The translations under genes and the position numbers were made by a program. Shown here one piece after another: positions 14,383 to 43,820 of a stretch of DNA of 64,000 nucleotides. The notes beneath the pieces were generated by a model, which was not told where the DNA came from, did no database searches, and worked only from the letters and a program-made list of their open reading frames with translations. Positions within the stretch are counted from its first letter, which is position 1, and every line of letters starts with the position of its first letter. Origin of the DNA: Candidatus Sulfotelmatobacter sp. (GTDB lineage: Bacteria > Acidobacteriota > Terriglobia > Terriglobales > Acidobacteriaceae); assembly GCA_030041215.1 (NCBI GenBank), contig JASHOH010000159.1, positions 1-64,000 on the forward strand, written 5' to 3'.

Positions 14383-17040
14383 ATGCGTGAGCTGGGTGCA
14401 AGCTTGACCTGCGTGCTCTGGTTCGTGTTGGGTTGTTGGGGGGTGAGTTCGGTCGCCCAGATCATCCCTGCGCAACGCGCACCCGTCAGCCGGGCAAATC
14501 CAACGAACCCGCCTGTTACTCAGAAAGTTACAGTTGCCGTAACGGACGAAAATGGCGTTGCCGTCCCGTCCGCGCGCGTGGAGTTGCAGCCACCGCCACC
14601 CGCGCTCGCATTGCGCTGCGAAACTGACTTTGCCGGCCGGTGTGAGTTCAATAATCTGCCTTCCGGCACGTACGAAGTTCGCACCGAGAAAACCGGCTTC
14701 TATGCCATGGTGCAATCCGGCGTGCAAATCAGCGGGGCGAATGTTGACCTAATTCTTTCTCACCAGCAGGAAGCGCATGAGGTCGTGAATGTTACCGAGT
14801 CAGCGCCGGCAATCGACCCGGGACAGATCGCCACCAAAGAAGAACTCAGCAGCACCGAGATTATCGACATTCCTTACCCTGGGTTCCACGATTATCGCAA
14901 CGCACTCATTTTCGTTCCCGGGGTCACGCCTGATGGGTTCGGCCTATTGCACGTGTCCGGCGCCGAAACCTATCAGACACTCGTTATTCTCGATGGATTC
15001 AATGTGACCCAGCCCACCAACGGCCAGTTAGCGGTAAGAACCAGCGTCGATTCTTTTCGCTCGATACAGATCACTCCCAGCAGAGAGCCGGCCGAATACG
15101 GAAAAGGTTCCGGCGGGGTGCTGGCATTGAACACGCGCATGGGAGATGATCATTTTCATTTTAATGCCATGGACTTCATCCCCGGCCTCCAGACAATCAA
15201 AGGGATTTCCCTCGGTCAGGCCACGCCAATTTTCACCGTGTCGGGACCAATCCGCAAAGGCAAGACATGGTTCATCGATGCTTTGAATGGCGAATACGAC
15301 AACAATATTTATGTGAACCTGCCTTCCAATGCCGATACCGACCACATCTGGCGCATCGATAATCTCGCCAAATTGCAAACCAATCTGACGGCGCGGCACA
15401 TTCTGACACTGAGTTTTCTTTCCAACTATTATCACGATCAATACGACGGATTGTCTCTTCTTCAGCCACAGCCAACGACTCCCACTGATGCCGAAACCGC
15501 TTATATCGGCTCGTTCAAGGACCAATATTATTTTCGCCGCGGAGCGTTGCTGGAAACTGGCTTCGGTGTGGCGCAATACACCGTGGATCTGACTCCACAG
15601 GGGAATGCTCCCTATATCGTGCTTCCGCCAGGACCGACAGGCAATCAAGCCGCGGCGGGCAACTACTATCTGCACGAGGACACTCTGGCGCGCAGAGTGC
15701 AGGGAATAGCAAATCTGTTTTTGCCTCCGCAACAGTGGCATGGACGCCACGACATCAAAGTCGGAGTCGATCTCGACCGCCTGAACTACAACGCGCAGTT
15801 CTTGCGGCAGCCGATTTCATTTTTGCAGGTCGGCCAGCCTCCGCCGGCACAGGCGCCACAGCCGTGCCCAACTGACTCAAACGGCGTTCCCATCGTGCCC
15901 TCAACCACCTGTGCCCGCTACTCGGTCTTCTCCGGAGGCACATACAACACAATTTTCAACACGGAAGCCAGCGCCTACGTCGAAGACCGCTGGCAGATCA
16001 CGAATCGATGGCTCATCGAACCCGGGCTGCGTTTCGATGAAGACCAAATCGTGCGCGCGCCATTGATCGCTCCCCGTTTGGCCGGAACCTATGTTCTCGA
16101 CGAGGAAGGGAATACCAAGCTCTCGGCAGGCATCGGCATTATTTACGATGGAACGGCTCTGGGATTGATCCATCAACCATTCGAAGGCCTGCGCACCGAT
16201 TACTTTTTCGACACAAATGGATGCCCGCAGGAGCCGAACGGGACGAGTGTGCCGTGCAGTCCGCCGCCGGCAGCGGAGCCGGCACCGATATCTGTTCCCA
16301 CAACATTCTTTGTCAACCGAAACACGCTTTCCGCTCCGCGCTACGTGAACTGGAGTGTGGGGTTGGAAAGGAAGCTCCCCTACGCAATTTTTCTGAAGCT
16401 CGAGTTCCTTGAAAAGCGTGGCTCCCGTGGCTTTGCCTACAACACAGTGAATGGAGCAGTGGATGGAAACTTCGTTCTTCAAAATCTCCGCGACGATCGT
16501 TACGACTCGTTCGAAATCAGCTTGCGGCACCGTTTTCGCCAGTATTACGAAATCTTCGGCGCATATACGTGGTCAAGAGCATATACGAATCAAGTCTTCG
16601 ATTTTAGTCTCGACATTCCGCTCTTAAGCCCGCAACTACCAGGACCGTATCCATGGGACACTCCCAACCGCTTTGTTGGCTACGGCATTCTGCCCGTGCC
16701 CACAGTGCCGATCATTCACAAATTTGATGTGGTTTACTCAGCAGAAGCTCGCACAGGTCTGCCTTTCCTTGCGACCACAAATCAGGGAGAGATTTCGCCC
16801 GGCCACCCTCCCGGCAGCTTCCGGCTTCCGACGTATTACACGGTTAACCTGCAATTCGAGAAACGCTTCCGTCTTCTCGGCCGTTATTGGGCGCTGCGCG
16901 GCGGCTTCGACAACGTTACCAATCATGCCAATGCAGCTCTGGCAAATGGCGTTATCGATCCATCCCATCCCCTGCCAACTTTCATCGACCAGAACGGGCG
17001 AGCGTTTACAGGAAGGATTCGATACTTGGGCAAGCAATGA
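14383..17040 (+). CDS. Oar-like TonB-dependent outer-membrane receptor
   Basis: An 885-residue outer-membrane protein. A signal peptide (1-26, ending SSVAQ) is followed by a carboxypeptidase-regulatory-like beta-sandwich (about 45-130: VTVAVTDENGVAVPSARVEL, LPSGTYEVRTEKTGF). A plug-like domain with PGVTPDGFGLLHVSGA and ILDGFNV follows at about 175-290, then a large beta-barrel. There is no obvious TonB box. This architecture is highly expanded in Acidobacteriota and probably takes up oligosaccharides or peptides; ligand unknown. The gene is divergent from the membrane aminopropyltransferase-like gene, with 223 bases between starts, and convergent with the quinone oxidoreductase gene. Confidence 0.85.
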   Translation: MRELGASLTCVLWFVLGCWGVSSVAQIIPAQRAPVSRANPTNPPVTQKVTVAVTDENGVAVPSARVELQPPPPALALRCETDFAGRCEFNNLPSGTYEVRTEKTGFYAMVQSGVQISGANVDLILSHQQEAHEVVNVTESAPAIDPGQIATKEELSSTEIIDIPYPGFHDYRNALIFVPGVTPDGFGLLHVSGAETYQTLVILDGFNVTQPTNGQLAVRTSVDSFRSIQITPSREPAEYGKGSGGVLALNTRMGDDHFHFNAMDFIPGLQTIKGISLGQATPIFTVSGPIRKGKTWFIDALNGEYDNNIYVNLPSNADTDHIWRIDNLAKLQTNLTARHILTLSFLSNYYHDQYDGLSLLQPQPTTPTDAETAYIGSFKDQYYFRRGALLETGFGVAQYTVDLTPQGNAPYIVLPPGPTGNQAAAGNYYLHEDTLARRVQGIANLFLPPQQWHGRHDIKVGVDLDRLNYNAQFLRQPISFLQVGQPPPAQAPQPCPTDSNGVPIVPSTTCARYSVFSGGTYNTIFNTEASAYVEDRWQITNRWLIEPGLRFDEDQIVRAPLIAPRLAGTYVLDEEGNTKLSAGIGIIYDGTALGLIHQPFEGLRTDYFFDTNGCPQEPNGTSVPCSPPPAAEPAPISVPTTFFVNRNTLSAPRYVNWSVGLERKLPYAIFLKLEFLEKRGSRGFAYNTVNGAVDGNFVLQNLRDDRYDSFEISLRHRFRQYYEIFGAYTWSRAYTNQVFDFSLDIPLLSPQLPGPYPWDTPNRFVGYGILPVPTVPIIHKFDVVYSAEARTGLPFLATTNQGEISPGHPPGSFRLPTYYTVNLQFEKRFRLLGRYWALRGGFDNVTNHANAALANGVIDPSHPLPTFIDQNGRAFTGRIRYLGKQ

Positions 17041-17053
17041 TGGTAAATCAGCG

Positions 17054-18052
17054 TCAGATTTTCAGGACGATCTTTCCGAAATTCCTGCCTTCCTGTAGCA
17101 GTTTGTAAGCCTCTGCTGCACGCTCAAGCGGGAAGACCTCACCTATAACCGGAGCCAGCTTACCCTGCTCAATCCACTCCGAAAGCTGCCGCCAGGCCGG
17201 TTCCATGATGTCGCGTTTCTGCGAGAGATAAGTCAGCCACAATCCCTGTGCCATAGCTGACTTTGCGTATAGCGCGCGTATGTCAAGCTGTGGTTGTTTG
17301 CCGGTCGCCGTGCCGTACTGAATCACGCGCCCGAAGTCGCGCAGGCAACGCAGGCTCTTGGCCGTATGATCGCCGCCTAACATTTCGAAGACCGCGTCCA
17401 CGCCTTCGCCATGGGTGAGGTCTTTAATGGCTTGCTCATAATCTTGCTGCTTGTAATTGATTCCGTGCTGAAGACCAAGCTTTCGCACGCGGCCAAGCTT
17501 TTCATCGGACGATGATGTCCCGTACATTTCAATGCCGAGAATATGTCCGATTTCAACTGCGGCAGTTCCGACACCGCCAGCGACGGCGTGGATGAGGACG
17601 CGGTGTTTAGGCCCCCGGGCTTCGCCCGGCTGGACAGGCGAGGGCGGTTGTCCCCACATGGCCGAAGGAATCATTCCTGCCTGCCAATAGGCGAGATAAG
17701 CGGTGAAATAATTCACGGGAAACGCGGCCGCTTGTTCGTCGTTCCAGGAATCGGAGACCGGCCACAGCAAGTGCGGGTGGGCTGGGACTTTCTCGGCGAA
17801 GGCCCCCCACTGGATGTAGCCCATCACTCGCCGTCCAGTGCTTTCTTCGATACCGGAGAATTCGCGGCCGGCAGTCAACGGTGGCGAAGGGGTTCCCGGA
17901 TAACCGCCGAGAGTCGTCATCACGTCGGCGAAGTTCAATCCGCCGGCCTTGACCCGCACCAGGGTTTGTCCTTGCGCCGGTGTTGGTTCGGGAATTTCTC
18001 TTATTGCAAGCGCTTCCGGTCCGGAAAGGCGGGTAATTACCAGGGCTTTCAT
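17054..18052 (-). CDS. Zinc-independent quinone oxidoreductase-like MDR protein
   Basis: A 332-residue medium-chain dehydrogenase/reductase. The N-terminal GroES-like part contains VRVKAGGLNFADVM and lacks the zinc ligands of alcohol dehydrogenases. The NADPH-binding Rossmann part has LIHAVAGGVGTAAVEIG at about residues 153-169. The family reduces quinones, enones or similar carbonyls with NADPH. Residues about 130-148 (SAMWGQPPSPVQPGEARGP) sit at a point where relatives run straight from the helix into the Rossmann strand; their DNA is a palindromic repeat word shared with the ispE insertion. Confidence 0.85.
   Translation of the reverse strand: MKALVITRLSGPEALAIREIPEPTPAQGQTLVRVKAGGLNFADVMTTLGGYPGTPSPPLTAGREFSGIEESTGRRVMGYIQWGAFAEKVPAHPHLLWPVSDSWNDEQAAAFPVNYFTAYLAYWQAGMIPSAMWGQPPSPVQPGEARGPKHRVLIHAVAGGVGTAAVEIGHILGIEMYGTSSSDEKLGRVRKLGLQHGINYKQQDYEQAIKDLTHGEGVDAVFEMLGGDHTAKSLRCLRDFGRVIQYGTATGKQPQLDIRALYAKSAMAQGLWLTYLSQKRDIMEPAWRQLSEWIEQGKLAPVIGEVFPLERAAEAYKLLQEGRNFGKIVLKI
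17611..17660. repeat. Palindromic repeat word inside the quinone oxidoreductase gene
   Basis: The words CCGGGCTTCGCCCGGC, then TGGACAG, and a second arm TGTCCCCAC lie in frame in this gene. The same order of words recurs in the in-frame insertion of ispE at 25273-25350. It contains two nested hairpins. Confidence 0.7.
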
Positions 18053-18425
18053 GAGCAGAGTCTAGCAGGAGACGAGGAAATTGCTTTGACCATCTCAATT
18101 ATCCTTGGCGATTTCGTATGTCTGCTTTTGCATCTGGTGGATCGAGGAGGCGAATTTCCAAGCCTTTTTGTCATCCTCGCCTGGAAAGTCTCATCTCCCA
18201 GTGATCGCCGCAGTTTGTTCTCCATCTGTTGGCTGGCGGGTATATACTCTGGGCGGTAGCTTACTGTAGTTTCTCCCGGCTACGCCTCTACCGGCCGGGA
18301 CGGGGCGATATTCATTCCCCTAATCCGCGCCCCGCATAAGCAATGCCACTTCCCGTCCGGGGGCGGCGAGGAAGCGGCACCGGTGCATCGCGTCGATGGC
18401 GATGCTGCACCGGGGGAGGTTTATT
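18053..18425. other. Non-coding region between divergent genes
   Basis: No gene found. A TATACT -10-like hexamer lies at 18243-18248 without a convincing -35 partner, and CCCGG..CCGGG can form a short hairpin at about 18275-18300. This is the leader region of the PIN-TRAM gene. Confidence 0.35.
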
Positions 18426-19523
18426 GTGAACTTAGTACTTGTACGTCTTCTTTTTGTGCTAGTTGTTGCGCTCACCTGTTACCTAATTGCCCCGTTCGGA
18501 CGCTCGCAAAAAGTGGATGCAGGCATTGGTGCGCTACTGGGCGCAATCATTGTCCTGTTCGAGTGGAAGCTGCGCACCGTCAGCCTGAAGCGGCTGATCG
18601 GCGCGGCTATTGGCAGCATCCTTGGCATCTGCGGTGCCTACCTGTTCGCGCTGGTTATTCGCAGCAGCGTACCCCCCGGCGGTACACAGAGCTTTCTCCA
18701 GATCCTGGTTATGCTCCTGATGGCCTACGTCGGCTTAATTGTCGGGGCCAACAAAGGCGACCTGCTCAATCTTGCGGCCCTGGGCGGAATCTTTGGCGGT
18801 GAGAAGCAGGGGAAGAAAAGCTACAAGATTCTCGACACCAGCGTCATTATCGACGGCCGTATTGCCGACATTGCGGAAACCGGCTTCCTCGATGGCATCA
18901 TCGTCACTCCTCAATTCGTACTGCGCGAACTTCAGCTCGTAGCCGACTCCGCGGATTCGCTGAAGCGCAACCGGGGGCGCCGCGGGCTCGACGTGTTACA
19001 GCGGCTGCAAAAGATGGCCACGTTGCAGATTCAGATTGTGGAAGATGATTTTCCAGCGATTCGCGAGGTCGATCTCAAGCTGATCGAATTGGCCAAGCTT
19101 TACGAGGGGAAAATCATTACCAACGATTTCAACCTGAACAAGGTCGCCCAGTTGCAGGGCGTGGAAGTGCTGAACATCAACGAGCTGGCGAACTCGCTTA
19201 AGCCCATCGTTCTGCCGGGCGAGATCATGAAGGTCTTCATCCTGAAAGAAGGCAAGGAATACAACCAGGGCGTCGCCTACCTCGATGACGGCACCATGGT
19301 GGTCGTCGATAATGCGCGCAAGATGATCGGCAAGACCATCGACGTTTCAGTTACCTCCGTCCTTCAGACTACAGCCGGAAAGATGATCTTTGGCAAGTGG
19401 GATGAGCGGGCATTTACGAGGACGACCGTACCCGGTCCCTCCACAACGTCCGCGGTTACGGGGGCACCAGTGACGGGGCCAGTGGTGCCTAACACGCTGG
19501 TCGAGACTAAGCCGCAGCCCTAG
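18426..19523 (+). CDS. PIN/TRAM-domain integral membrane protein (YacL-like)
   Basis: A 365-residue protein. I choose the GTG at 18426 because GGGGGAGG lies 7 bases upstream and the protein then begins directly with the first membrane helix ([18 protein letters not shown]); the frame is open 10 codons further. Four membrane helices occupy residues 1-115. A PIN nuclease-like domain follows ([15 protein letters not shown] with conserved Asp, to about 260), then a TRAM RNA-binding domain and a Thr/Pro-rich tail. The family resembles Bacillus YacL; possible RNase or RNA-binding role at the membrane. It precedes ispD and ispF, the same neighbourhood as in Gram-positive bacteria. Confidence 0.85.
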
Positions 19524-19675
19524 CAAAGGCCAACTCACTGACCCGCAGAAAACGGAGCACGCCGGGAATCTTGGCCCTTGGTGGTATTTTTCTCGGCGAT
19601 CTCGGCTTCCCCAATCGCGAAGATTGTCCTGCGATTTGAAAGTCCTGCGCGGCACTCGTATACTTACACCCCGCT

Positions 19676-20422
19676 ATGAAGGTTGTTGTGATCATTCCCG
19701 CCGCGGGGCTGGGCACGCGGATGGCTTCGGCGCACGCGGCCGGAGGCCGGCAGAAGAACACTCTGCTTTCCAAGCAGTTCACGGAACTGGGTGGCACACC
19801 GATCCTCATTCGTACTTTGCGCAAGTTTGCCGCCGTCAATGCGGTGAGCGAAATCTGGGTCGCCCTTCGGCAAAATGAGATTGCCGGCTTCCGCGCGCGT
19901 CTGGAAAGCGAAGCCAAGGATATCTTGACGAAGAAGGTAGAGTACATTGTTGGCGGCGAGCATCGCCAGCATTCGGTCCAGAACGCACTGAACGCGGTCT
20001 CTGCGGCACCTGATGATATTGTGCTGGTGCATGACGCCGTGCGGCCGTTTGTTACTCACGAGATCATTCAGGACGTGATTGAGGCGGCACAGAAATACGG
20101 AGCGGCAATTGCGGGGGTGCCCGCTGTCGATACGGTGAAGCAGGTCGAGCGTACTGCTGAGGGAGCGCTCATCAAAGCGACCATTCCACGCGCCGCGATT
20201 GTGCTGGCCCAGACTCCACAGGGTTTTCGCTATGGCGTCATCAAGAAGGCCTTCGACGAGGCCGCAGCTGATGGATTTCTGGGAACGGACGAGGCCTCGC
20301 TGGTAGAGCGGTCTGGGCACGATGTTGCTGTGGTGATGGGCTCGCCGCAGAACATCAAGATCACCGCTCCTTCTGACATGGAATTGGCCGAGTTCTATTT
20401 GAAGACTTCAGATCGCCACTGA
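19676..20422 (+). CDS. ispD: 2-C-methyl-D-erythritol 4-phosphate cytidylyltransferase
   Basis: A 248-residue enzyme of the MEP isoprenoid pathway that joins MEP to CTP. The N-terminal nucleotide-binding loop IIPAAGLGTRM is followed by KQFTELGGTPIL. Further signatures are VHDAVRPFV (metal and CTP site) and PSDMELAE near the C-terminus. A small acidobacterial insertion (ASAHAAGGRQKNTLL) separates the loop from KQF. The gene is followed after only 4 bases by ispF, indicating an operon, and ispE lies 4 kb downstream. Confidence 0.95.
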   Translation: MKVVVIIPAAGLGTRMASAHAAGGRQKNTLLSKQFTELGGTPILIRTLRKFAAVNAVSEIWVALRQNEIAGFRARLESEAKDILTKKVEYIVGGEHRQHSVQNALNAVSAAPDDIVLVHDAVRPFVTHEIIQDVIEAAQKYGAAIAGVPAVDTVKQVERTAEGALIKATIPRAAIVLAQTPQGFRYGVIKKAFDEAAADGFLGTDEASLVERSGHDVAVVMGSPQNIKITAPSDMELAEFYLKTSDRH

Positions 20423-20426
20423 CCCA

Positions 20427-20957
20427 ATGCCAACGACCAACCACCGGCGACCAACGACCAGAATTGGCTACGGTTTCGATTCCCATGAATTCCGTGCCGG
20501 CATTCCGCTAAAGATCGGTGGCATTGCACTGGCGCATGACAAGGGACTTGGCGGACATTCCGACGGAGATGTGCTGCTGCATGCCATCACCGATGCTCTG
20601 CTCGGGGCGGTTGCAGCGCCGGATATTGGAGCTTTGTTTCTACCTTCCGATCCGAAATGGAAGGGTGCCGATTCGGTGGTGTTTCTGCATGAGGCGCTGA
20701 AACGGGTGCGCGGCGCAGGATATCGCGTGGCGAATGTCGATGCAAGTTTGATCATGGCCGCGCCCAGGATTGGGCCTCACGCTGCAGAAATTCGATCGCG
20801 CGTTGCCCGGTTACTGGGCGTGAGGGCTGATTGCGTCGGGCTGAAGGCGAAAACTCCTGAGGGATTAAACCTGGAAAATGCCGCAATTGCCCATGTAGCC
20901 GTGCTGCTGGAGAAGGCGGCGGCTGCGCGACGGTCTCGAAAAAAATCCAAAACGTGA
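20427..20957 (+). CDS. ispF: 2-C-methyl-D-erythritol 2,4-cyclodiphosphate synthase
   Basis: A 176-residue MEP-pathway enzyme that cyclises CDP-ME 2-phosphate with release of CMP. RIGYGFDSHEF gives the metal-binding Asp and His, and GGHSDGDVLLHAITDALLGA the third His and helix. LKAKTPEGL carries the active-site Thr-Glu. The protein normally begins close to RIGYG; here 11 additional residues (PTTNHRRPTT...) are encoded by an iterated CCAACGACC-type word, so the intergenic repeat has been absorbed into the N-terminus or the true start is obscured. A charged Lys/Arg tail ends the protein. Translationally close to ispD. Confidence 0.93.
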   Translation: MPTTNHRRPTTRIGYGFDSHEFRAGIPLKIGGIALAHDKGLGGHSDGDVLLHAITDALLGAVAAPDIGALFLPSDPKWKGADSVVFLHEALKRVRGAGYRVANVDASLIMAAPRIGPHAAEIRSRVARLLGVRADCVGLKAKTPEGLNLENAAIAHVAVLLEKAAAARRSRKKSKT

Positions 20958-20959
20958 GT

Positions 20960-21772
20960 TTATCTAGTGCGCGTCTCGGCGGCTTCGATCAGAGCGTGGA
21001 ATATGGCGCGGGAGGCTTGATCCTCATCAATAGAGCGTTCAGGGTGCCATTGCACGGCGAGCACGAAGTGATTTGAATCTGTTCCTTCCAAAGCTTCGAT
21101 GATGTTGTCATCCGGGCAGCGGGCGGAGATGCGCAGGCCCTGGCCGATCGCGTCGGCGGATTGGTGGTGGGAAGAATTCACCGGCAGCAGAATCGTTTTC
21201 TCAGCGGCTAAAGCCCCGTCTGCTTGGCTCCGCTTGCGCGGCGCTGAAGCACCGCTCTTCCACGGTTGCTCCCCATCGACAATTTGCGCCAGCTTTGACT
21301 TCCTCTCAATCTCGACTGTGTGAGCTATTGGAATTTTTCGACCGGCTTCGTGATTGACGCGCGTGCGCAGCGACTCCGGCAGGAAATCCGGGATGTGCTG
21401 CACCAGTGAACCCGAGCAGAAGACGTTCAGGCTTTGCAGTCCGTAGCAAATTCCAAGAACCGGCTTGCGTGTCTCATAGGCATCTTGCAACAAGAGAGTG
21501 TCAACAGCGTCGCGTTGAACATCGGGAGCGGCGCTGCGCAGTGAGCGCTCCGCTCCGTATTTCGCGGGGTCGACGTCAGCGTTGCTGCCGGGCAGAAGCA
21601 GGCCGTCACAGCGCTCGAAAATTTTTCGCACTTCCTCCCCTCTTCGATCAAGCGGCACGCGCAACGGTTCGCCTCCGGCTTGTTCGACGGCACGCTCATA
21701 CTGAACGATTGCGCGCTCGGCATATTCCGGATCAAGCGAATGCGGCATAGGGATGGCGATGCACGGCAGCAT
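20960..21772 (-). CDS. Class I glutamine amidotransferase (peptidase C26/PuuD-like)
   Basis: A 270-residue enzyme. The nucleophile is Cys109 in VLGICYGLQSLNV and the catalytic pair is His243/Glu245 in VQWHPERS, as in gamma-glutamyl-GABA hydrolases and related C26 peptidases. GLLLPGSNADVDPA at about 57-70 is the family substrate-loop. Residues about 169-193 are not seen at this place in relatives I know, and their DNA holds a palindromic word also found in ispE (see repeat at 21238). The substrate could be a gamma-glutamyl amine or peptide; not proven. The gene abuts the small membrane gene upstream (stop of one next to start of the other). Confidence 0.85.
   Translation of the reverse strand: MLPCIAIPMPHSLDPEYAERAIVQYERAVEQAGGEPLRVPLDRRGEEVRKIFERCDGLLLPGSNADVDPAKYGAERSLRSAAPDVQRDAVDTLLLQDAYETRKPVLGICYGLQSLNVFCSGSLVQHIPDFLPESLRTRVNHEAGRKIPIAHTVEIERKSKLAQIVDGEQPWKSGASAPRKRSQADGALAAEKTILLPVNSSHHQSADAIGQGLRISARCPDDNIIEALEGTDSNHFVLAVQWHPERSIDEDQASRAIFHALIEAAETRTR
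21238..21265. repeat. Palindromic repeat word inside the amidotransferase gene
   Basis: GCGGCGCTGAAGCACCGC followed by TCTTCCACGG. Copies with two or three differences lie at 22352-22379 (intergenic/kinase fragment) and 25216-25243 (inside ispE). Here the word is read on the opposite strand in frame as part of an insertion at residues 169-193. Confidence 0.75.
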
Positions 21773-22063
21773 TCAGCTTACTCTCTCGATCCCAGCCAGC
21801 GTTTTTAATTGCCGATAATGGCGGACCTCAATTGTCACCGAGAGAACGAAGATAACGCATCCCGCGACAAGCGCTATCGGTATGGCAATAAGCCGGTAGG
21901 CTACCCTCATATCAGGATGAACGCGGCGCAGGGCTGCAACAATCAGAGTACCGACAATGCCGAACAGTAGACTGACGGCGAATGCGATCAGGGTGCAAAT
22001 GAAGGTCACCAGCACGACCCGCACCGGGATAGTGAACCAGCGGGGTGGACGTGCTTGCGGCAT
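21773..22063 (-). CDS. Small two-helix membrane protein
   Basis: A 96-residue protein with two clear hydrophobic segments, VRVVLVTFICTLIAFAVSLL with its continuation (about 14-45) and a second at about 58-80 (AIPIALVAGCVIFVLSVTI). The stop codon is immediately followed by the start of the amidotransferase gene on the same strand, so the two are probably one operon. No family recognised. Confidence 0.6.
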   Translation of the reverse strand: MPQARPPRWFTIPVRVVLVTFICTLIAFAVSLLFGIVGTLIVAALRRVHPDMRVAYRLIAIPIALVAGCVIFVLSVTIEVRHYRQLKTLAGIERVS

Positions 22064-22332
22064 AATCTAGACTACATCAGAGCAGAGCCGATGTGCATTC
22101 CTTGGCGAGCGCCGAAGAGATTTTTAAGCCTGTCCTACCCCTCCCCCTTATGTTTGACTCTTTAGAATCATCGACTTAGCGGGGAAATCCTCTTTGATCT
22201 ACGTCGCTCAGTAACTTACGGGCAAAATCCTGGAAACAAATGACTTAGTTCAATGATATTAAACATCCAATTACCGTTTCTCGTAGATATTGTTAGCAAA
22301 CTTGTAGAGGAAGTCAACCGAAAAATTGGGGT

Positions 22333-22479
22333 TCACATCGACACCGCTAACGCGGCGCTAAAGCGCCGCTCTTCCATGGTGCGGCCGAGGTCGGTGTCTT
22401 GCGCCTTGTAAACCACACCCATCCCACCACCGCCCAGCTTCTCAATGATGCGGTAATGCGAGATGGTTTGGCCGATCAT
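22333..22479 (-). pseudogene. N-terminal fragment of a Ser/Thr protein kinase
   Basis: A 48-codon frame reads [20 protein letters not shown] then [13 protein letters not shown], which is the glycine-rich ATP loop of bacterial eukaryotic-like kinases. The VAIK lysine strand and everything after it are missing: right after DLGR the frame runs into the palindromic repeat and stops. It is a truncated relic; whether the repeat caused the break is not known. Confidence 0.8.
22352..22379. repeat. Palindromic repeat word at the kinase break point
   Basis: GCGGCGCTAAAGCGCCGC followed by TCTTCCATGG, the same word as at 21238 and 25216. Its 3' end touches the surviving kinase sequence. Confidence 0.75.
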
Positions 22480-22681
22480 CGTGCTCGCGCGCGAGCCCAC
22501 CCTTCGAAAACTCTTCGACTTTGCTCAGGGCAGGCTACGGGTGGGACCCCTCAGCCGGAATGGGAGTAATGCTACGGAGGTGGGTCGGGCAAGTCAATCG
22601 CGCGTGAGCGGAGGATGGGCCAGAAGCGAATGCAAAGCAGAAGTCACGCGGCATTTTCAGGTAGTGTATAAGTAATTAAGT

Positions 22682-23419
22682 ATGTCGCAGGCGGCATCAG
22701 CCATTACGCGGAGCCCCGCCGATGTAGTTCGGATCACGCCCGTTTCGCAGGCGGCGAATGGAGTGTGCTACGCCACATCCGGTGAAATCTCGGTCAGCTC
22801 TTTCGATCTGGAGCGCATGATTGGCGCCGTTCCCGTTAAGATCGCCACAGCTCTCCGGCGCAAGGCTTACTACTTCGTTCCGCTGACGGTCGGGCAGGGC
22901 GAGGACACGCTCATCGCCGACCGGTATGACGTGGCGCTCAGCGATAACGCCGTGTGCCATCGCAATTTGAATCTGGGCGATTCACAGTGCGTGTTCATCT
23001 CCACGCGGTTGATGGATGACAAGTTTTCAGTCGCTTTCGAGTTCTATATCAATGTAGGACATGCACTGGTAGAAATCGCCGGCGTTTCGCGGGAGTTCAG
23101 CGAGCTGGCATGGAAGCAGGTAGATGCTGGCGTGCGTGGTGAGACCTCACTGGATGCTTGGGAATCCCGCAAGCTGGCAAGCGCCCGTGGGCCCGACGCC
23201 GAGCGTTATAAGAACGAATATTTCGAGGCGACGTTTGCCGACACGATTTCTATCTACCTGCTCTCGATGTATCTAGACGTGGACTATCACGATCTGCGGG
23301 AGCGGGATTATCCTCTGCTGGCGCCATCGGCGCTGGCTGAGCGCTTGCGGAAAGTGGCGGAGCTGTTCCCGGCGAATCCGGGATATGAATTTGCGGTGCT
23401 GTACAGGCGGCGGGGATAA
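22682..23419 (+). CDS. Conserved-looking hypothetical protein
   Basis: A 245-residue soluble protein. I do not recognise a domain. It has no signal peptide or membrane helix. Regular alternation (SVSSFDLERMIGAVPVKIAT, SVAFEFYINVGHALVEIAG) suggests an alpha/beta fold, and acidic-aromatic clusters (YLDVDYHDLRERDYPLL) occur near the C-terminus. The open frame has normal codon bias for this genome and is long, so I consider it real. It is convergent with the cupredoxin-like gene. No ribosome site is clear. Confidence 0.6.
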   Translation: MSQAASAITRSPADVVRITPVSQAANGVCYATSGEISVSSFDLERMIGAVPVKIATALRRKAYYFVPLTVGQGEDTLIADRYDVALSDNAVCHRNLNLGDSQCVFISTRLMDDKFSVAFEFYINVGHALVEIAGVSREFSELAWKQVDAGVRGETSLDAWESRKLASARGPDAERYKNEYFEATFADTISIYLLSMYLDVDYHDLRERDYPLLAPSALAERLRKVAELFPANPGYEFAVLYRRRG

Positions 23420-23451
23420 GGCCGACGCGGGGCAGTGCCCACTCTACAACC

Positions 23452-24264
23452 TCACTTATTCCCGATCGCAAAATTGACTGTGCTGGCCGAATTTGCGTTT
23501 ACCGTGACCGATTTCTGCCAAGTCTTCGGGTCGCTGAACACCGGCCGCTGCACGGCGTGCTCGGTGAGCACGTCATAGGCCTGTTCCTTACCGATCAGAA
23601 TCCAGCCCTCGTGCCATGCCACGATTTCATAGGTTCCGGCAGGGACATTGGTGAACTCGAAACGTCCGCTCTCGTCGGTAACGGCATAATACGGGTGAGC
23701 GGCGACCATCATTTCGGCATTCATCCAAACGTGGCCGCCGTTACAACGGAGATTGACCAGGCCGGGAGTTGACATGCTGCGCGTTACGACCTGGTTAGGA
23801 AATGGGAAAGGCAGGTTGTAGCTGGCAGCTCCATCCATGTGGATGGTGTGCAGCGTGGCATCGGAACTTTGCATCGACAACATTGCATTCTGCGGCACCA
23901 GAAGAATATGCGGAATGTAGCGGCAATGCTTCTGGTCAAGGTGACGGCGCTGTTCGGGAAGTTCCATCGCTTTTCCAGCATGGATGTTCTTCAGGTAAAC
24001 GACGGTGTTGGCGACTCCGTTATCCGGCCCAATAATGAGACGATCCAAAGAAGCCGTTTTCTGGCCATCAATTTCGCAGATGGCTGGGTCTTTGGTGATG
24101 GGCAACTCAAGCTCGCGGGGAACAGGTCCAGACCATTTGACGGTGCCGGAAATGGTGCCTCCGTCGGTAATCGAGATGACTTGGTAGTCCGATTGCGCGG
24201 CAGCGAGAGTTACGGCCGCAAGTGAAAAAAACAGCCCAGAAACGACGGTATTCATTTTCCGCAT
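23452..24264 (-). CDS. Secreted cupredoxin-like protein with CarboxypepD_reg-like C-half
   Basis: A 270-residue exported protein with a signal peptide (about 4-24, ending LAAAQ). Residues 35-185 contain ANTVVYLKNI, a second His/Cys-containing strand (QKHCRYIPHILL) and ATLHTIHM, followed by LRCNGGHVWMNAEMM. The spacing His139, Cys174, His178, Met181 fits a type 1 copper site (cupredoxin). Residues 195-225 (DESGRFEFTNVPAGTYEIVA) match a carboxypeptidase-regulatory strand set. Proteins of this type are often found with respiratory or copper genes; here it is alone. Function as electron carrier is inference. Start uncertain: ATG at 24264 or 24255. Confidence 0.65.
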   Translation of the reverse strand: MRKMNTVVSGLFFSLAAVTLAAAQSDYQVISITDGGTISGTVKWSGPVPRELELPITKDPAICEIDGQKTASLDRLIIGPDNGVANTVVYLKNIHAGKAMELPEQRRHLDQKHCRYIPHILLVPQNAMLSMQSSDATLHTIHMDGAASYNLPFPFPNQVVTRSMSTPGLVNLRCNGGHVWMNAEMMVAAHPYYAVTDESGRFEFTNVPAGTYEIVAWHEGWILIGKEQAYDVLTEHAVQRPVFSDPKTWQKSVTVNANSASTVNFAIGNK

Positions 24265-24612
24265 ATAAAGAAGCCCCGTTAGCCCACCGCCCGTTGCTGC
24301 GCTTGCGATCGCGTACAACGCGGGCTGGAATTTTGGATCGTCTTGCTTTCCACAAGCAACGTCACCAACTTGCGGGACAGCGCTGCACAGGGGCCCGGCC
24401 TGGGGCGGCCAGCGCTATCGTTTGCGGTCGTACCGGATTCCAAACGGGAGGACCGTCACCGGCTCGTGTGATCGGAATCACTGACATTAGACTGCGCTAA
24501 TTGTCCTCGGCGGTCGAGATTACCAAGGTGATATCTCCGCAGGGGGTGGCCATAACCAGACATAACAAGTGCCGCTTCCCGCTTCAGGGCGAAGTATTTA
24601 CAATCGTCCTCC
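24265..24612. other. Non-coding region between divergent genes
   Basis: No gene recognised and no strong promoter or hairpin seen. It separates the cupredoxin-like gene from ispE, and must hold both promoters. Confidence 0.35.
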
Positions 24613-25749
24613 ATGTCGGTAACCGTGCGATCTTTCGCGAAGATCAATCTCGGGCTACGTATTGGCGCCCGGCGGCAGGATGGTTTTCACGATCTGCTGA
24701 CGGTCTATCAAACGATTGGGCTGCATGATGTTATCCGGCTAACGGTAGAGCGCGGCAGCGGGATTGAAATTCACTGCACTGATTCCAGAGTTCCCTATGA
24801 TGAGTCGAATACTTGTCACCGCATCGTTGAGAAGGCATTGTCCGTACTGGGTGCGAAGGGCCGCGTTCTAATCGAAATTGAAAAGCGATTGCCAGTGCAG
24901 GGCGGGCTCGGTGGGGCTTCGTCGAATGCCGTAGCGGCGCTAATCGCGCTCGAGAGAGCTTTGAAGAAAAATTTGTCGGCATCAGAACGGCTGCGTATTG
25001 CGAGAGAAGTGGGTTCGGACTTGCCGCTTTTTCTGATCGGCGGCACAGTTCTAGGGATTGGTCGTGGGGAAGAGGTTTATCCGCTGGAAGATTTGTCAGC
25101 GATGGCCTGCGTGGTGGTGACGCCGGAGGTGGGAGTGTCTACGCCGAAGGCTTTTGTGGAGTGGGACCGACGACAGGCGCAGGGGCCAAAGCCCCCTTCC
25201 TCAAAGGCTCCTGACGCGGCGCTGAAGCGCCGCTCTTGCACGCTCGACCCAGAGTGCGGGGAGGAACAGGTCGCCGGGCTTCGCCCGGCCGGACAGCCCC
25301 GTTCGGCTCGCTCACGCTCGCTCAGGGCAGGCTGGACGGCTGTCCCCACGTTGACCAGCCCCGCTACGTCCGATAGAATGAGTGAGCTTAGCCTAGAGCT
25401 TTCGGCGTGGCTGAGCGAGAGCTTTTCCGGTGCTCCTCAGAGTGGTCGGCGGTTCAGGAGGGGCCGGGCCGAGAACCTGCTTCTCGCGCTTGTCCGGACC
25501 GGGATTCAGAACGACTTCGAACAGGTCGTCCTTCCCGAGTATCCCGAGTTGAGTGAAGCGAAGCGTGCGTTGGAGGGCGCGGGCGCGAAATATGCGTCGT
25601 TGTCAGGCTCTGGCTCGGCGTTGTATGGATTATTCGCCCGCCGAGAACGCGCGCGGCTTGCGGCAAGGCGACTGCGCCAGCAAGGTTGGGAGGCGCAGGA
25701 AACGGTCACGCTGATGCGACGGCAATATTGGAAGCGGATAATCGCGTAG
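24613..25749 (+). CDS. ispE: 4-diphosphocytidyl-2-C-methyl-D-erythritol kinase with in-frame repeat insertion
   Basis: A GHMP-family kinase of the MEP pathway that phosphorylates CDP-ME with ATP. SFAKINLGLRI supplies Lys10, LPVQGGLGGASSNAVAAL (93-110) is the ATP loop, and GSDLPLFL carries the catalytic Asp136. SLSGSGSALYGLF near the C-terminus is the third GHMP motif. The protein is 378 residues, whereas the family is usually about 280-310. The surplus is at residues about 187-255, Pro/Arg/Ser-rich, encoded by palindromic repeat words. Both sides of the insertion remain in frame with all catalytic motifs intact, so the enzyme is probably active. ispD and ispF lie 4 kb upstream. Confidence 0.92.
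   Translation: MSVTVRSFAKINLGLRIGARRQDGFHDLLTVYQTIGLHDVIRLTVERGSGIEIHCTDSRVPYDESNTCHRIVEKALSVLGAKGRVLIEIEKRLPVQGGLGGASSNAVAALIALERALKKNLSASERLRIAREVGSDLPLFLIGGTVLGIGRGEEVYPLEDLSAMACVVVTPEVGVSTPKAFVEWDRRQAQGPKPPSSKAPDAALKRRSCTLDPECGEEQVAGLRPAGQPRSARSRSLRAGWTAVPTLTSPATSDRMSELSLELSAWLSESFSGAPQSGRRFRRGRAENLLLALVRTGIQNDFEQVVLPEYPELSEAKRALEGAGAKYASLSGSGSALYGLFARRERARLAARRLRQQGWEAQETVTLMRRQYWKRIIA
25171..25377. repeat. Composite palindromic insertion inside ispE
   Basis: Roughly 200 bases holding three hairpins: GCGGCGCTGAAGCGCCGC (25216), GCCGGGC-TTC-GCCCGGC (25273-25289) and GGACAGCC...GGCTGTCC (25291/25338-25345). The first word recurs at 21238 and 22352, the second and third at 17611-17660, and GCTCAGGGCAGGCT at about 22519. 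Boundaries are estimated from the protein. Confidence 0.7.
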
Positions 25750-25770
25750 CAGCATGGCGCGCAAATTTTT

Positions 25771-25856
25771 GATTGTTGATTGTTGATTTTTGATTGAAAA
25801 TCTATATGTACCCGTGATGGGGTTTCAATCGACAATCAGCAGTCAACATCAACAAT
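25771..25856. repeat. Iterated-word foldback (TTGATTG type)
   Basis: Left arm 25771-25800 iterates GATTGTTGATTGTTGATT; right arm 25822-25856 iterates its complement (CAATCGACAATC.., CAACATCAACAAT). It separates ispE from tRNA-Gln. Confidence 0.75.
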
Positions 25857-25864
25857 GGCTTTAC

Positions 25865-25938
25865 TGGGCCGTCGACTAATGGTAGGTCAAGTGCCTTTGG
25901 AGCACTTTGTCTAGGTTCGAATCCTAGCGGCCCAGCCA
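25865..25938 (+). tRNA. tRNA-Gln (anticodon TTG)
   Basis: The acceptor strands TGGGCCG and CGGCCCA pair fully; the anticodon stem AGTGC/GCACT encloses CTTTGGA, giving anticodon TTG; the T-arm CTAGG-TTCGAAT-CCTAG is canonical. The 3' CCA is encoded (GCCA at 25935-25938). It sits between two foldback repeats, so it may be a separate transcript. Confidence 0.95.
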
Positions 25939-25943
25939 GAAAT

Positions 25944-26028
25944 CAGTTCTCAGTTGCCAGTTCTTGGTTCTCAGTTGAACTGGCCGAGCCCCAAAAACTG
26001 AGAATTGACAACAGAGAACTGAGAACTG
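25944..26028. repeat. Iterated-word foldback (GTTCTCAGTT type)
   Basis: Left arm 25944-25980 (CAGTTCTCAGTTGCCAGTTC...) and right arm 25996-26028 (AACTGAGAATTG..., GAGAACTGAGAACTG) are imperfect complements. The right arm ends 2 bases before the prs start codon and occupies the place of its ribosome site. Confidence 0.75.
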
Positions 26029-26030
26029 CT

Positions 26031-27092
26031 ATGGCTACCCTGATCACCGAAAAGGCGGAAAAGGTCGAGAAGAAGTCCGAACACATGGCCGACGAGAAGC
26101 CGGAGCGCAAACCGCGCCCGCGCGCGGATGACAAGTTCAAAATCTTCAGTGGCACGGCGAACGAGCCGCTGGCGGATGAGGTTTGCAATTTTCTCGGCAT
26201 GCCCAGGGGGCAGGCGCAGGTGGTCCGCTTCGCCGATGGCGAGGCCTACGTGCAGATTCAGGAGAACGTGCGCGGCGCCGACGTTTTCGTGATGCAGCCG
26301 ACTTGCCGCACCGTGCACCTGAATGGCAAGAGTTCCAGCGTCGATGAGCACCTGATGGAGTTGCTGTTGATGATTGACGCGCTCAAGCGCGCTTCAGCCC
26401 GGCGCATCACAGCGGTGATGCCATATTTCGGCTACGCACGGCAGGACCGCAAGGACAAGCCGCGCAGCCCGATTTCATCGAAGCTGGTGGCAGATTTGTT
26501 GACGACCGCCGGTGCACAACGGGCACTGATTGTGGATTTGCATACGCCGCAGTTGCAGGGATTTTTCAATATTCCGGTGGACCATCTGTTCGCTTCACCG
26601 GTGCTGGTGGATCACTTTAAGAAGCTGAATCTACCGAACTTGACGGTGGTCTCTCCCGATGCGGGAGGCGTGGAGCGAGCTCGTTTTTTTGCCAAGAAAG
26701 TCGACGCGGCCCTGGCCATAGTCGACAAGCGCCGCACGGACGTGAACGTAGCCGAAGTGATGCACGTCATCGGCGATGTGAACGGGCGCACGTGCTTGAT
26801 CATCGATGATCTGATCGACACGGCAGGCACGCTGGTGAAAACCGCGAAGGCTCTGATCGAGAACGGCGCGACTGAGGTTTACGCGTGTTCGTCGCACGCG
26901 GTTCTTTCGGGCCCGGCCGTGGAAAACATTTCGAAGTCGATAATTCGCGAAGTCGTGGTGACGAACACGATTCCGCTGAGCGAGGAGGCCAAGCGCGAGC
27001 CAAAAATTCGCGTGCTTTCCATCGCAGGGTTGATCGGCCGGGCGATTCAGGCCAATCACGAAGAGACTTCGGTAAGCAAGTTATTCATCTAG
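26031..27092 (+). CDS. prs: Ribose-phosphate pyrophosphokinase
   Basis: A 353-residue enzyme making PRPP from ribose 5-phosphate and ATP, feeding purine, pyrimidine, His, Trp and NAD synthesis. KIFSGTANEPLADEVC starts the conserved core at about residue 36; VMPYFGYARQDRKD is the flexible ATP loop, DLHTPQLQGFF the regulatory-site region, and LIIDDLIDTAGTL the PRPP-binding loop. Residues 1-35 are a Glu/Lys-rich extension absent from most Prs proteins; translation could instead begin at the internal ATG at about residue 19. It precedes rplY by 15 bases. Confidence 0.95.
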   Translation: MATLITEKAEKVEKKSEHMADEKPERKPRPRADDKFKIFSGTANEPLADEVCNFLGMPRGQAQVVRFADGEAYVQIQENVRGADVFVMQPTCRTVHLNGKSSSVDEHLMELLLMIDALKRASARRITAVMPYFGYARQDRKDKPRSPISSKLVADLLTTAGAQRALIVDLHTPQLQGFFNIPVDHLFASPVLVDHFKKLNLPNLTVVSPDAGGVERARFFAKKVDAALAIVDKRRTDVNVAEVMHVIGDVNGRTCLIIDDLIDTAGTLVKTAKALIENGATEVYACSSHAVLSGPAVENISKSIIREVVVTNTIPLSEEAKREPKIRVLSIAGLIGRAIQANHEETSVSKLFI

Positions 27093-29049: not shown

Positions 29050-29055
29050 ACGGAA

Positions 29056-29150
29056 TCGTTGATTGTTGATTTCTGATTCTTGATTGAACACCAAGTCAAC
29101 TTCCGCAAGAAATTTCTCAATTAACAATCAAAAATCAACAATCGACAATT
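29056..29150. repeat. Iterated-word foldback (TTGATTG type), copy 2
   Basis: Left arm 29056-29088 (GTTGATTGTTGATTTCTGATT...) and right arm 29115-29150 (CAATTAACAATCAAAAATC..) pair over about 30 bases. Same word family as 25771-25856. Located between rpsF and rpsR. Confidence 0.8.
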
Positions 29151-35663: not shown

Positions 35664-35709
35664 GAGATCCCTCGCCCCGCTGGTGAAAACGCGGGGCTTC
35701 GGGATGACG
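35664..35709. repeat. 46-bp hairpin repeat, copy 1
   Basis: CCTCGCCCCGCTGGTGAAAA with the arm GCGGGGCTTCGGGATGACG. An inverted copy with few differences is at 43775-43820. It lies between pyrB and rocD and could attenuate transcription between them. Confidence 0.75.
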
Positions 35710-35790
35710 GCGGAGAAAGGTCGGCAGCCTGCACCAGGGACGATTTTTTGAACCATGTATGGTTTGTCGTGTCATTGAAAAGGGAGAGAC

Positions 35791-43759: not shown

Positions 43760-43774
43760 CGGAGGATGGGCCGG

Positions 43775-43820
43775 CGTCATTCCGAAGCCCCGCGCTTTCA
43801 CCAGCGGGGCGAGGAATCTC
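43775..43820. repeat. 46-bp hairpin repeat, copy 2 (inverted)
   Basis: CGTCATTCCGAAGCCCCGCG and CAGCGGGGCGAGGAATCTC; reverse complement of 35664-35709 with about four changes. It lies 16 bases past the PDZ gene stop and may serve as the end of the sigma operon. Confidence 0.75.

What the first reader, a model, noticed from the sequence alone, without database searches (positions are those of the whole stretch)
17611..25377. Palindromic repeat elements inserted in frame in three conserved enzymes
Seen: two shared word sets lie inside coding DNA. CCGGGCTTCGCCCGGC + GGACAG + TGTCCCCAC occurs in the quinone oxidoreductase gene (17611-17660) and in ispE (25273-25350). GCGGCGCTGAAGCGCCGC + TCTT occurs in the amidotransferase gene (21238), in ispE (25216) and in a kinase relic (22352). 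In each enzyme the words encode residues at a place where relatives lack them, with catalytic motifs preserved on both sides. Known: Rickettsia palindromic elements behave this way. Inference: a comparable coding-tolerant element family exists in this acidobacterium.
Basis: partly seen in the sequence, partly recalled or inferred. Interest (0 to 1): 0.82.

Follow-up and report, generated by a model that had tools for sequence, protein, structure and literature searches.

The report
Mobile hairpin repeats inside enzyme genes
Short hairpin-forming DNA repeats, of two families each tied to its own small transposase, sit in frame inside flexible loops of several conserved enzymes of a soil acidobacterium; such repeats were already known to enter genes now and then, but here the same loops carry them in many species of one genus and the transposase lineages can be named.

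Summary
Confirmed and extended. The word sets belong to two repeat families of the genus Candidatus Sulfotelmatobacter. Family A (two hairpins, ~65 nt) has 65 copies at up to 2 mismatches in this genome, family B 46; reversed-pattern controls gave 0 here. A is in 32 of 37 and B in 37 of 37 genomes of the genus; outside it 1 (noise level) and 0 of 24.

Each family is tied to its own lineage of REP-associated tyrosine transposase (RAYT): all 9 closest A-RAYT loci and all 6 closest B-RAYT loci carry cognate repeats nearby; 20 of 21 and 24 of 24 other loci examined do not. So these are REP doublets.

Eight of 65 A copies lie in frame inside Pfam-supported genes, among them ispE, gyrA, pheT, tilS and fpg. 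Sister species lack them or carry repeats in the same loop. In pheT the hairpin stays 91% identical while fourfold sites are at 46.5%. In 22 of 28 RAYT genes the repeat's inner hairpin encodes the transposase's own C-terminus. Intragenic REPs are known; this is a well-anchored new variant.

The parts
17054..18052 (-). quinone oxidoreductase (PIG3-like) gene that carries a family B unit
   Evidence: ORF; Pfam ADH_zinc_N, ADH_zinc_N_2, ADH_N; TIGR02824 quinone_pig3 full-length match, below its cut-off
17611..17660 (+). family B doublet (hp1 CCGGGCTTCGCCCGGC 17615-17630; hp2 with tail 17632-17657), read on the opposite strand as MWGQPPSPVQPGEARG
   Evidence: 2 mismatches to the family B hairpin; 10 of 23 same-genus orthologues have a 12-residue loop, 25 residues here
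20960..21772 (-). class-I glutamine amidotransferase (Peptidase_C26) gene carrying a family A doublet
   Evidence: ORF; Pfam PF07722
21200..21265 (+). family A doublet: hp1 21200-21216, spacer, hp2 + tail to 21265; read on the opposite strand as PWKSGASAPRKRSQADGALAAE
22350..22379 (+). solitary hp2 half of family A at the broken end of a Ser/Thr-kinase N-terminal relic ([48 protein letters not shown]; kinase named from its motifs, recalled)
   Evidence: no spanning ORF of 100 aa or more
24613..25749 (+). ispE (CDP-ME kinase) carrying A and B units between Trp-Asp-Arg (residues 184-186) and residue ~248
   Evidence: ORF; TIGR00154 over its cut-off; Pfam GHMP_kinases_N/C; invariant W184 D185; model matches solved IspE
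25178..25243 (+). family A doublet in ispE: hp1 25178-25194, spacer, hp2 + tail; peptide QGPKPPSSKAPDAALKRRSCTL
25273..25349 (+). family B doublet in ispE whose hp2 loop holds a third repeat (family D, ~25299-25333)
   Evidence: folding

Best explanation
The words are parts of two families of REP doublets (paired hairpins), each tied to its own lineage of REP-associated tyrosine transposase (RAYT, an HUH single-strand transposase) and most likely spread by it. SHOWN: family identity, near-restriction to the genus, stem covariation, linkage of each family to one RAYT lineage, in-frame copies in eight Pfam-supported genes, orthologues without them. INFERRED: the RAYT moved the hairpin pair, or a larger composite of such pairs, as single-stranded DNA; insertions that broke genes were purged, and those that landed in frame in exposed loops stayed. 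The unit is easy to tolerate because hp2 is stop-free in five of six frames in its commoner form, and because in most RAYT loci the inner hairpin of the downstream unit is translated as the RAYT's own C-terminus (..PQGLKP..), so this DNA has been under coding constraint at its source. In this species no cognate RAYT was found and the spacers of its copies are all unlike each other, so the copies look like old residents; in a sister species with the RAYT some dispersed copies are still nearly identical.
For: Copies: 65 A, 46 B, reversed controls 0. Range. Stem covariation at one hp2 pair: G-C 40, C-G 16, unpaired 5 of 61. RAYT link, A: search of 61 genomes, 40 matches, 30 given as loci; the 9 best (L224-L232, 9 species) all have A copies near, 7 on both sides within ~0.7 kb, 2 on one side; of the other 21 loci 20 have none and L245, a fragment, has some; the four such RAYTs in the tree form one clade (0.96). 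RAYT link, B: 47 matches, 30 given as loci; 6 of 6 best lie between B copies, 0 of 24 others have one within 1 kb. Both RAYTs pass NF047646 (111.4 and 80.8 bits, cut-off 80). Copy number is higher with the cognate RAYT: A median 38 (n=9) against 5.5 (n=28), p 0.0004; B 87 (n=6) against 27 (n=31), p 0.01. RAYT frame read through hp1 in 22 of 28 loci looked at. In-frame genes; five frames used. Loop: AlphaFold model of IspE has residues 197-249 under pLDDT 50, the rest matches IspE 1uek, TMt 0.80. G001: 4 of 409 spacer pairs between loci at 75% or more; this genome: 0 of 738.
Against: No movement was observed. No insertion boundary is clean: in gyrA the sister with a 95% identical protein lacks the unit, but the linker around it differs too, so no joint or target duplication could be read. 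No GTAG tag as in classical REPs. Two RAYTs of other clades also have one A copy each, L204 at ~0.2 kb and L201 at ~1.4 kb. The copy-number test ignores kinship and MAG incompleteness, and counts G034 (RAYT with a stop) as having and G007 (fragment) as lacking the RAYT. No expression data.
Confidence: 0.85

Rival explanations
1. A Rickettsia-type palindromic element: a coding-tolerant selfish repeat of its own kind, with no transposase link.
For: Same behaviour: in frame, in loops of conserved enzymes, several frames. PMC3733652 equates RPE-4 and RPE-6 with intragenic CGTC REPs and reports no transposase association of CGTC repeats.
Against: Each family here sits at the flanks of one RAYT lineage. 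The CGTC tag is not conserved (GACG directly before the stem in 19 of 65).
Confidence: 0.06
2. The hairpins are functional structures kept by selection in these genes (mRNA structure, gyrase or chromosome-structure sites), and mobility is of minor importance today.
For: In pheT of seven species hp2 DNA is 91% identical (21 pairs) while fourfold sites are 46.5% and spacers 43% (15 pairs); in ispE of five species 85% (hp2) and 93% (hp1) against 43% for the spacer; the hp1-hp2 distance is 22-27 nt in 39 of 65 copies while the spacer has almost no sequence information.
Against: Re-insertion or homogenisation from other copies gives the same pattern; in most genes looked at many sister species lack the unit; hairpin conservation is partly built in by searching for it.
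Confidence: 0.25
3. Old loop inserts that came in once in the genus ancestor and have been lost many times, so that 'insertion' in this species is not an event of its own. (A question of history that can be true together with the best explanation.)
For: Where shared, the units have the same strand, frame and loop (ispE A in five species, pheT A in seven); the pheT spacer of this genome and G010 is 85% identical.
Against: Fewest state changes on the species tree: 4 (ispE A), 5 (ispE B), 4 (QOR B), 5 (pheT A); the ispE hp2 of this genome is of the GCGC type while the four others are GCCC.
Confidence: 0.35
4. Chance similarity or assembly artefact.
For: None found.
Against: Zero hits in shuffles, zero reversed-pattern matches in all 37 same-genus genomes (two outside genomes had one each), zero hits in 389,700 codon-shuffled bases.
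Confidence: 0.005

Closest known systems
REP sequences / BIMEs / REPINs with RAYT (REPtrons)
   Same: Paired palindromes, tens of copies, mostly outside genes, RAYT gene flanked by inverted units, pairing of repeat type and RAYT lineage, spacers between the palindromes.
   Different: No GTAG tag; the two hairpins of a unit differ from each other; 8 of 65 A copies inside Pfam-supported genes; the RAYT frame runs into the unit in 22 of 28 loci, of which related cases are in print (PMC2817692, passages).
TIRYT / TIRtron elements of Acidobacteria (T. saanensis, K. versatilis, A. capsulatum, G. mallensis; PMC3733652, sections 15, 16 and part 1 of 17 seen)
   Same: RAYT-like genes with long inverted repeats, some overlapping the gene ends, some forming repeat families; the reported GGGGWSAS motif fits the family B end (GGGGACAG).
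   Different: Other genera; the parts seen do not mention intragenic copies of TIR families; supplementary files were not seen.
Rickettsia palindromic elements (RPE)
   Same: In-frame palindromic inserts in conserved proteins.
   Different: PMC3733652 assigns RPE-4 and RPE-6 to CGTC REPs, which lack a transposase link; sequences were not compared here; RPE details beyond that paper are recalled.
Intragenic GTAG REPs of O. terrae and others (PMC3733652)
   Same: REPs encoding 20-30 residues inside replication, repair and tRNA-related genes; recB of two Xanthomonas hit at about the same site.
   Different: Here the same loop is occupied in up to nine species of one genus (pheT, two of them decayed), with other species empty, and DNA-level retention was measured.

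Membership tests
REP / RAYT (REPtron) elements | Repeats flank a gene for a REP-associated tyrosine transposase | tested here: met
   9 of 9 (A) and 6 of 6 (B) closest RAYT loci; NF047646 above cut-off
REP / RAYT (REPtron) elements | Short palindromes, tens to hundreds of dispersed copies, often paired | tested here: met
   65 A and 46 B copies; hp1 found 22-27 nt from the hp2 core in 39 of 65 A copies
REP / RAYT (REPtron) elements | Conserved GTAG tag next to the hairpin (classical superfamily) | tested here: not met
   GTAG/CTAC near the A stem in 3 of 65 copies on either side; not counted for B
REP / RAYT (REPtron) elements | RAYT binds and cuts the single-stranded repeat | not testable with these tools
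   needs purified protein
REP / RAYT (REPtron) elements | Predominantly extragenic | tested here: met
   57 of 65 A copies not inside a Pfam-supported gene; 39 of 42 distinct spanning ORFs of 100 aa or more were scanned; B not tested
Rickettsia palindromic elements / CGTC REPs | CGTC tag at one end | tested here: not met
   GACG directly before the A stem in 19 of 65
Rickettsia palindromic elements / CGTC REPs | In-frame presence in unrelated conserved proteins | tested here: met
   eight A-bearing genes plus the quinone oxidoreductase with B
Acidobacterial TIRYT elements | GGGGWSAS motif in the inverted repeat | tested here: inconclusive
   family B end reads GGGGACAG, which fits; family A end (TGGAAGAG) does not; compared by eye with the motif quoted in PMC3733652

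The most novel reading that the evidence does not exclude
Conserved enzyme loops are a stable habitat for REP hairpins: once inside a gene, the hairpin DNA is held by selection or by continual rewriting from other copies, while the spacer between the hairpins and the silent sites around it drift to saturation, so that a mobile-element structure is kept at DNA level inside core genes (pheT, ispE) across a genus, even in species without a cognate transposase; and the element can live there because one half of it evolved as the coding 3' end of the transposase gene.
Probability: 0.4. Interest if true: 0.8.

Novelty: new variant of a known kind. Interest (0 to 1): 0.62.

Why it matters
REPs are defined as extragenic, and it is open how coding-tolerant palindromic inserts such as those of Rickettsia arise. 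Here in-frame inserts, the family they belong to, and the transposase lineage that carries the same family at its flanks are in hand in one genus with dozens of genomes, including species with and without the transposase. That makes three questions testable: whether RAYTs create in-frame protein inserts, why these tolerate translation, and whether hairpin DNA inside genes is under selection. Annotation should also expect repeat-derived '[10 protein letters not shown]', 'PWKSGASAPR' or 'MWGQPPSAVQ' segments in proteins of these bacteria.

Tried and rejected
Rejected: chance (shuffles, reversed patterns and codon-shuffled sequence); a known RNA family (Rfam at gathering thresholds finds only the tRNA at 25865-25935 in 17000-26500); a single element family (A and B have different hairpins and different RAYT lineages); a plain IS200 transposase (NF033573 below its cut-off for both RAYTs). 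Led nowhere: the 30 loci of the PF01797 search (L154-L183) were other lineages, among them only L173 and L177 showed A words and L162 a B word; an exact insertion joint in gyrA, QOR, ispE or the amidotransferase could not be read because the loops differ otherwise too; VIA-align library not available. Long spanning ORFs not counted as intragenic: L033 and L044 (the unit lies before the likely start of the domain protein), L004 (run of N, not scanned), the antisense ORF of ispE (not scanned), and 29 other distinct ORFs without a Pfam match.

Choices behind counts: the 8 intragenic copies are those with an ORF of 100 aa or more, at least 20 residues on either side of the unit, and Pfam domains around it. 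In PheT the Pfam domains lie only on the C-terminal side and the N-terminal part is supported by its alignment with orthologues; in the BNR-like protein the C-terminal-side matches are below the Pfam cut-off. RAYT loci were 40 chosen from the capped list of PF01797 places in same-genus genomes. One search used 28 of the 30 loci (L241 and L245 left out). Species tree: 24 genomes, three proteins, loops left out. For ispE B I counted G000 (interrupted unit) and G019 (4 mismatches) as present and weaker look-alikes (G011, G021) as absent; for ispE A, G016 (4 mismatches) as present; for pheT the result was 5 changes with or without the two decayed copies. QOR of G016 has 4-5-mismatch B words counted as absent.
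Full report
WHAT IS THERE. Both word sets are in the window at the stated places and are far beyond chance. They are ends of larger units. Family A is a two-hairpin unit of about 65 nt: CTCAG + hairpin 1 (GGGCTRAAGCCC) + a spacer + ACGCG-hairpin 2 (core GCGCTRAAGCGC) + tail CGCTCTTCCACGG. In this genome 65 places match the hairpin 2 core at up to 2 mismatches (27 exact; reversed-pattern control 0). Hairpin 1 was found upstream of 40 of the 65, 39 of them at 22-27 nt from the core and one stray at 43. The spacer carries 0.03-0.23 bits per position in its first 14 nt against 1.0-2.0 in hairpin 1 and the core (the hairpin values are partly forced by the search). One stem pair of hairpin 2 covaries: G-C 40, C-G 16, unpaired 5 of 61. 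Family B has a hairpin of variable stem followed by GGACAGCCGAGGGCGGCTGTCC and CCAC; 46 matches in this genome at up to 2 mismatches, control 0.

RANGE. Family A (up to 1 mismatch) is in 32 of 37 genomes of the genus, 0 to 77 copies, and in 1 of 24 genomes outside it, with one copy; two outside genomes had one reversed-control match each, so the outside hit is at noise level. Family B is in 37 of 37, 1 to 161 copies, and 0 of 24 outside. The genus is Candidatus Sulfotelmatobacter, inferred from two contigs with that name in their titles (JASIEN010000717.1, JASICF010000185.1) whose lengths equal G013:C222 and G009:C610; a further contig with the length of G015:C187 (PMSQ01000201.1) is titled only Acidobacteriaceae bacterium.

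THE TRANSPOSASES. A first pass over 40 same-genus PF01797 loci showed clusters of A copies at four RAYTs that form one clade (support 0.96), and single copies near two RAYTs of other clades, L204 and L201. A search with one of the four over 61 genomes gave 40 matches in 22 genomes; 30 came as loci. The 9 best, in 9 species, all have A copies near: on both sides within about 0.7 kb in 7, on one side in 2. One fragment (L245) also has some; the other 20 loci have none. Those others often carry the same architecture with another hairpin 2 and tail (for instance GGCACGACTGAAGTCGTGCCCTTCCCGG, GGCGCGCCTGAAGGCGCGCCCTTTCAA, CGCAGCGCTGAAAGCGCTGCGCCACCC; read by eye), as expected if repeat and RAYT diverge together. 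For family B, three B copies around a ~540-nt gap in G026 pointed to a second RAYT; a search with its relative from G001 gave 47 matches, 30 as loci: the 6 best all lie between B copies and 0 of the other 24 have one within 1 kb, three having one further off. Both proteins are RAYTs by NCBIfam NF047646 (111.4 and 80.8 bits, cut-off 80) and Pfam Y1_Tnp. In this genome the best matches to the A and B queries are 54% and 46% identical and have no cognate repeats nearby, so no cognate RAYT was found here.

WHY THE UNIT TOLERATES TRANSLATION. In 22 of 28 loci the RAYT reading frame runs through hairpin 1 of the downstream unit, with a C-terminus of the type ..PQGLKP..; the stop lies in the spacer or just beyond in the A lineage, and in several other lineages the frame runs on for 150-225 nt through the whole unit. 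So part of the unit is coding DNA at its source. PMC2817692 reports four cases of a rayt 3' end built into a BIME, and PMC3733652 mentions repeats overlapping RAYT gene ends, so the overlap as such is not new.

INSIDE GENES. Of the 65 A copies, 8 lie inside Pfam-supported genes: ispE and the C26 amidotransferase in the window, and gyrA, pheT, tilS, mutM/fpg, an FAD-oxidase/Fe-S protein (with other repeat-like pieces beside it, by eye) and a YCF48/BNR-like protein elsewhere. The other 57 have no such gene: of 42 distinct spanning ORFs of 100 aa or more, 39 were scanned. Five reading frames are used ([49 protein letters not shown]); these are the five that are stop-free when the loop reads CTGAAG. 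The quinone oxidoreductase carries B. In IspE the AlphaFold model has residues 197-249 below pLDDT 50 and matches solved IspE (1uek, E 1.3e-19, TM by target 0.80).

ORTHOLOGUES. QOR: 12 residues in 10 of 23 orthologues, 25 here; B on the same strand at up to 3 mismatches in G000, G015, G012, G020. ispE (22 orthologues): A in G001, G004, G012 and, weaker, G016; B at up to 2 mismatches in G002, G020, G023, G006; loops of 7-23 residues without A or B units in G005, G007, G008, G009, G014, G015, G024. Amidotransferase: a whole A unit here only; loops of 5-14 residues without any match in 10 of 23 others (an eleventh has a weak B-tail match). pheT: A in G000, G010, G013, G001, G002, G004, G015, decayed in G003 and G007; no hairpin 2 in G005, G006, G008, G009, G011, G014. 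gyrA: A here and (3 mismatches) in G007, traces in G011 and G001; absent in G010, whose protein is 95% identical. On a tree of 24 genomes the fewest changes are 4 (ispE A), 5 (ispE B), 4 (QOR B), 5 (pheT A). Recurrent insertion and old insertion with repeated loss are both possible: shared units keep strand and frame, which speaks for descent, while the ispE hairpin of this genome is of another stem type than the other four, which speaks for separate events.

DNA-LEVEL RETENTION. In pheT of seven species hairpin 2 with its tail (30 nt) is on average 91% identical over 21 pairs, hairpin 1 82%, the spacer 43% (15 pairs of equal length) and fourfold-degenerate sites of the same genes 46.5%. In ispE of five species hairpin 2 is 85%, hairpin 1 93%, the spacer 43% (10 pairs). 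Either the hairpins are under selection inside the genes or they are rewritten from, or re-inserted by, other copies. I could not separate these.

AGE. In G001, which has the RAYT, 4 of 409 spacer pairs between 20 fetched places are at least 75% identical (a trio on three contigs at 94-100%, and one pair at 79%); in this genome 0 of 738 (shuffled null 1 of 8180 and 2 of 14760). The likeness is not confined to one doublet: the trio shares about 180 nt, an inverted pair of doublets with outer sequence, before the flanks part, and the other pair about 150 nt. So what spread there was a larger composite.

COMPARISON. What it works like: RAYT-borne REPs. Membership: RAYT link, palindromes, pairing and extragenic majority are met; the GTAG tag is not; biochemical recognition is untested. 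It does not meet the CGTC tag of the Rickettsia elements. PMC3733652 (passages, sections 15 and 16, part 1 of section 17) already describes intragenic REPs, with R. conorii RPE-4/-6 among them, and acidobacterial RAYT-like genes with inverted repeats; PMC6006769 (passages) notes about 600 hairpin structures tied to class 3 Y1 transposases in Solibacter; PMC3116915 (passages) defines REPINs; PMC12306157 and PMC8266576 were seen in passages. No paper in the library holds both 'Sulfotelmatobacter' and 'palindrom'; searches listed no report of these families, though only titles and abstract starts were seen for most papers listed.

VERDICT. The finding is real and its inference is right in substance. 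It is a new variant of a known kind: intragenic REP doublets with identified RAYT lineages, recurrent at the same protein loops in a genus.

Noticed in passing
window 22523-22536 and 25320-25333: A further dispersed repeat (GCTCAGGGCAGGCT) beside the kinase relic and nested inside the family B hairpin of ispE.
   Followed up: partly
window 35664-35713, 42571, 43771-43820, 48947: Copies of another repeat of the type ..TCGGRATGAC; the 50-nt copies at 35664 and 43771 are inverted and 92% complementary.
   Followed up: no
window 27862, 42495, 48258, 48871: Four copies of a 58-nt repeat, 74-84% like the reference copy, not assigned to any family.
   Followed up: no
window 25764-26028 and 29054-29150: TTGATTGTTGATT-type and CAGTTCTCAGTT-type inverted repeats around the tRNA gene.
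   Followed up: no
window 22300-22500, minus strand: Ser/Thr-kinase N-terminus cut short at a solitary family A hairpin, which is read in frame up to a stop; the repeat may mark the breakpoint.
   Followed up: partly
L379 (G001:C49:14000-15500): Array of seven nearly identical family A doublets within 1.5 kb.
   Followed up: no
L353 (G001 pheT): A third hairpin type (GGCGCGGCTGGAAGCCGCGCCCTTTCAA) nested between the two A hairpins inside pheT, in frame.
   Followed up: partly
L018 (G000:C161:42323): FAD/Fe-S oxidoreductase gene with the A unit between B-like and other repeat-like peptides in one in-frame stretch (by eye).
   Followed up: partly
L034 (G000:C233, near 34586): An ORF across an A copy ends in YMHRNPVVRGL.., which looks like a RAYT C-terminus relic (recalled motif); no Pfam match.
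   Followed up: no
flanks of L233-L253: Sister RAYT lineages with the same two-hairpin layout but other hairpin 2 and tails, suggesting a larger superfamily of doublets.
   Followed up: partly
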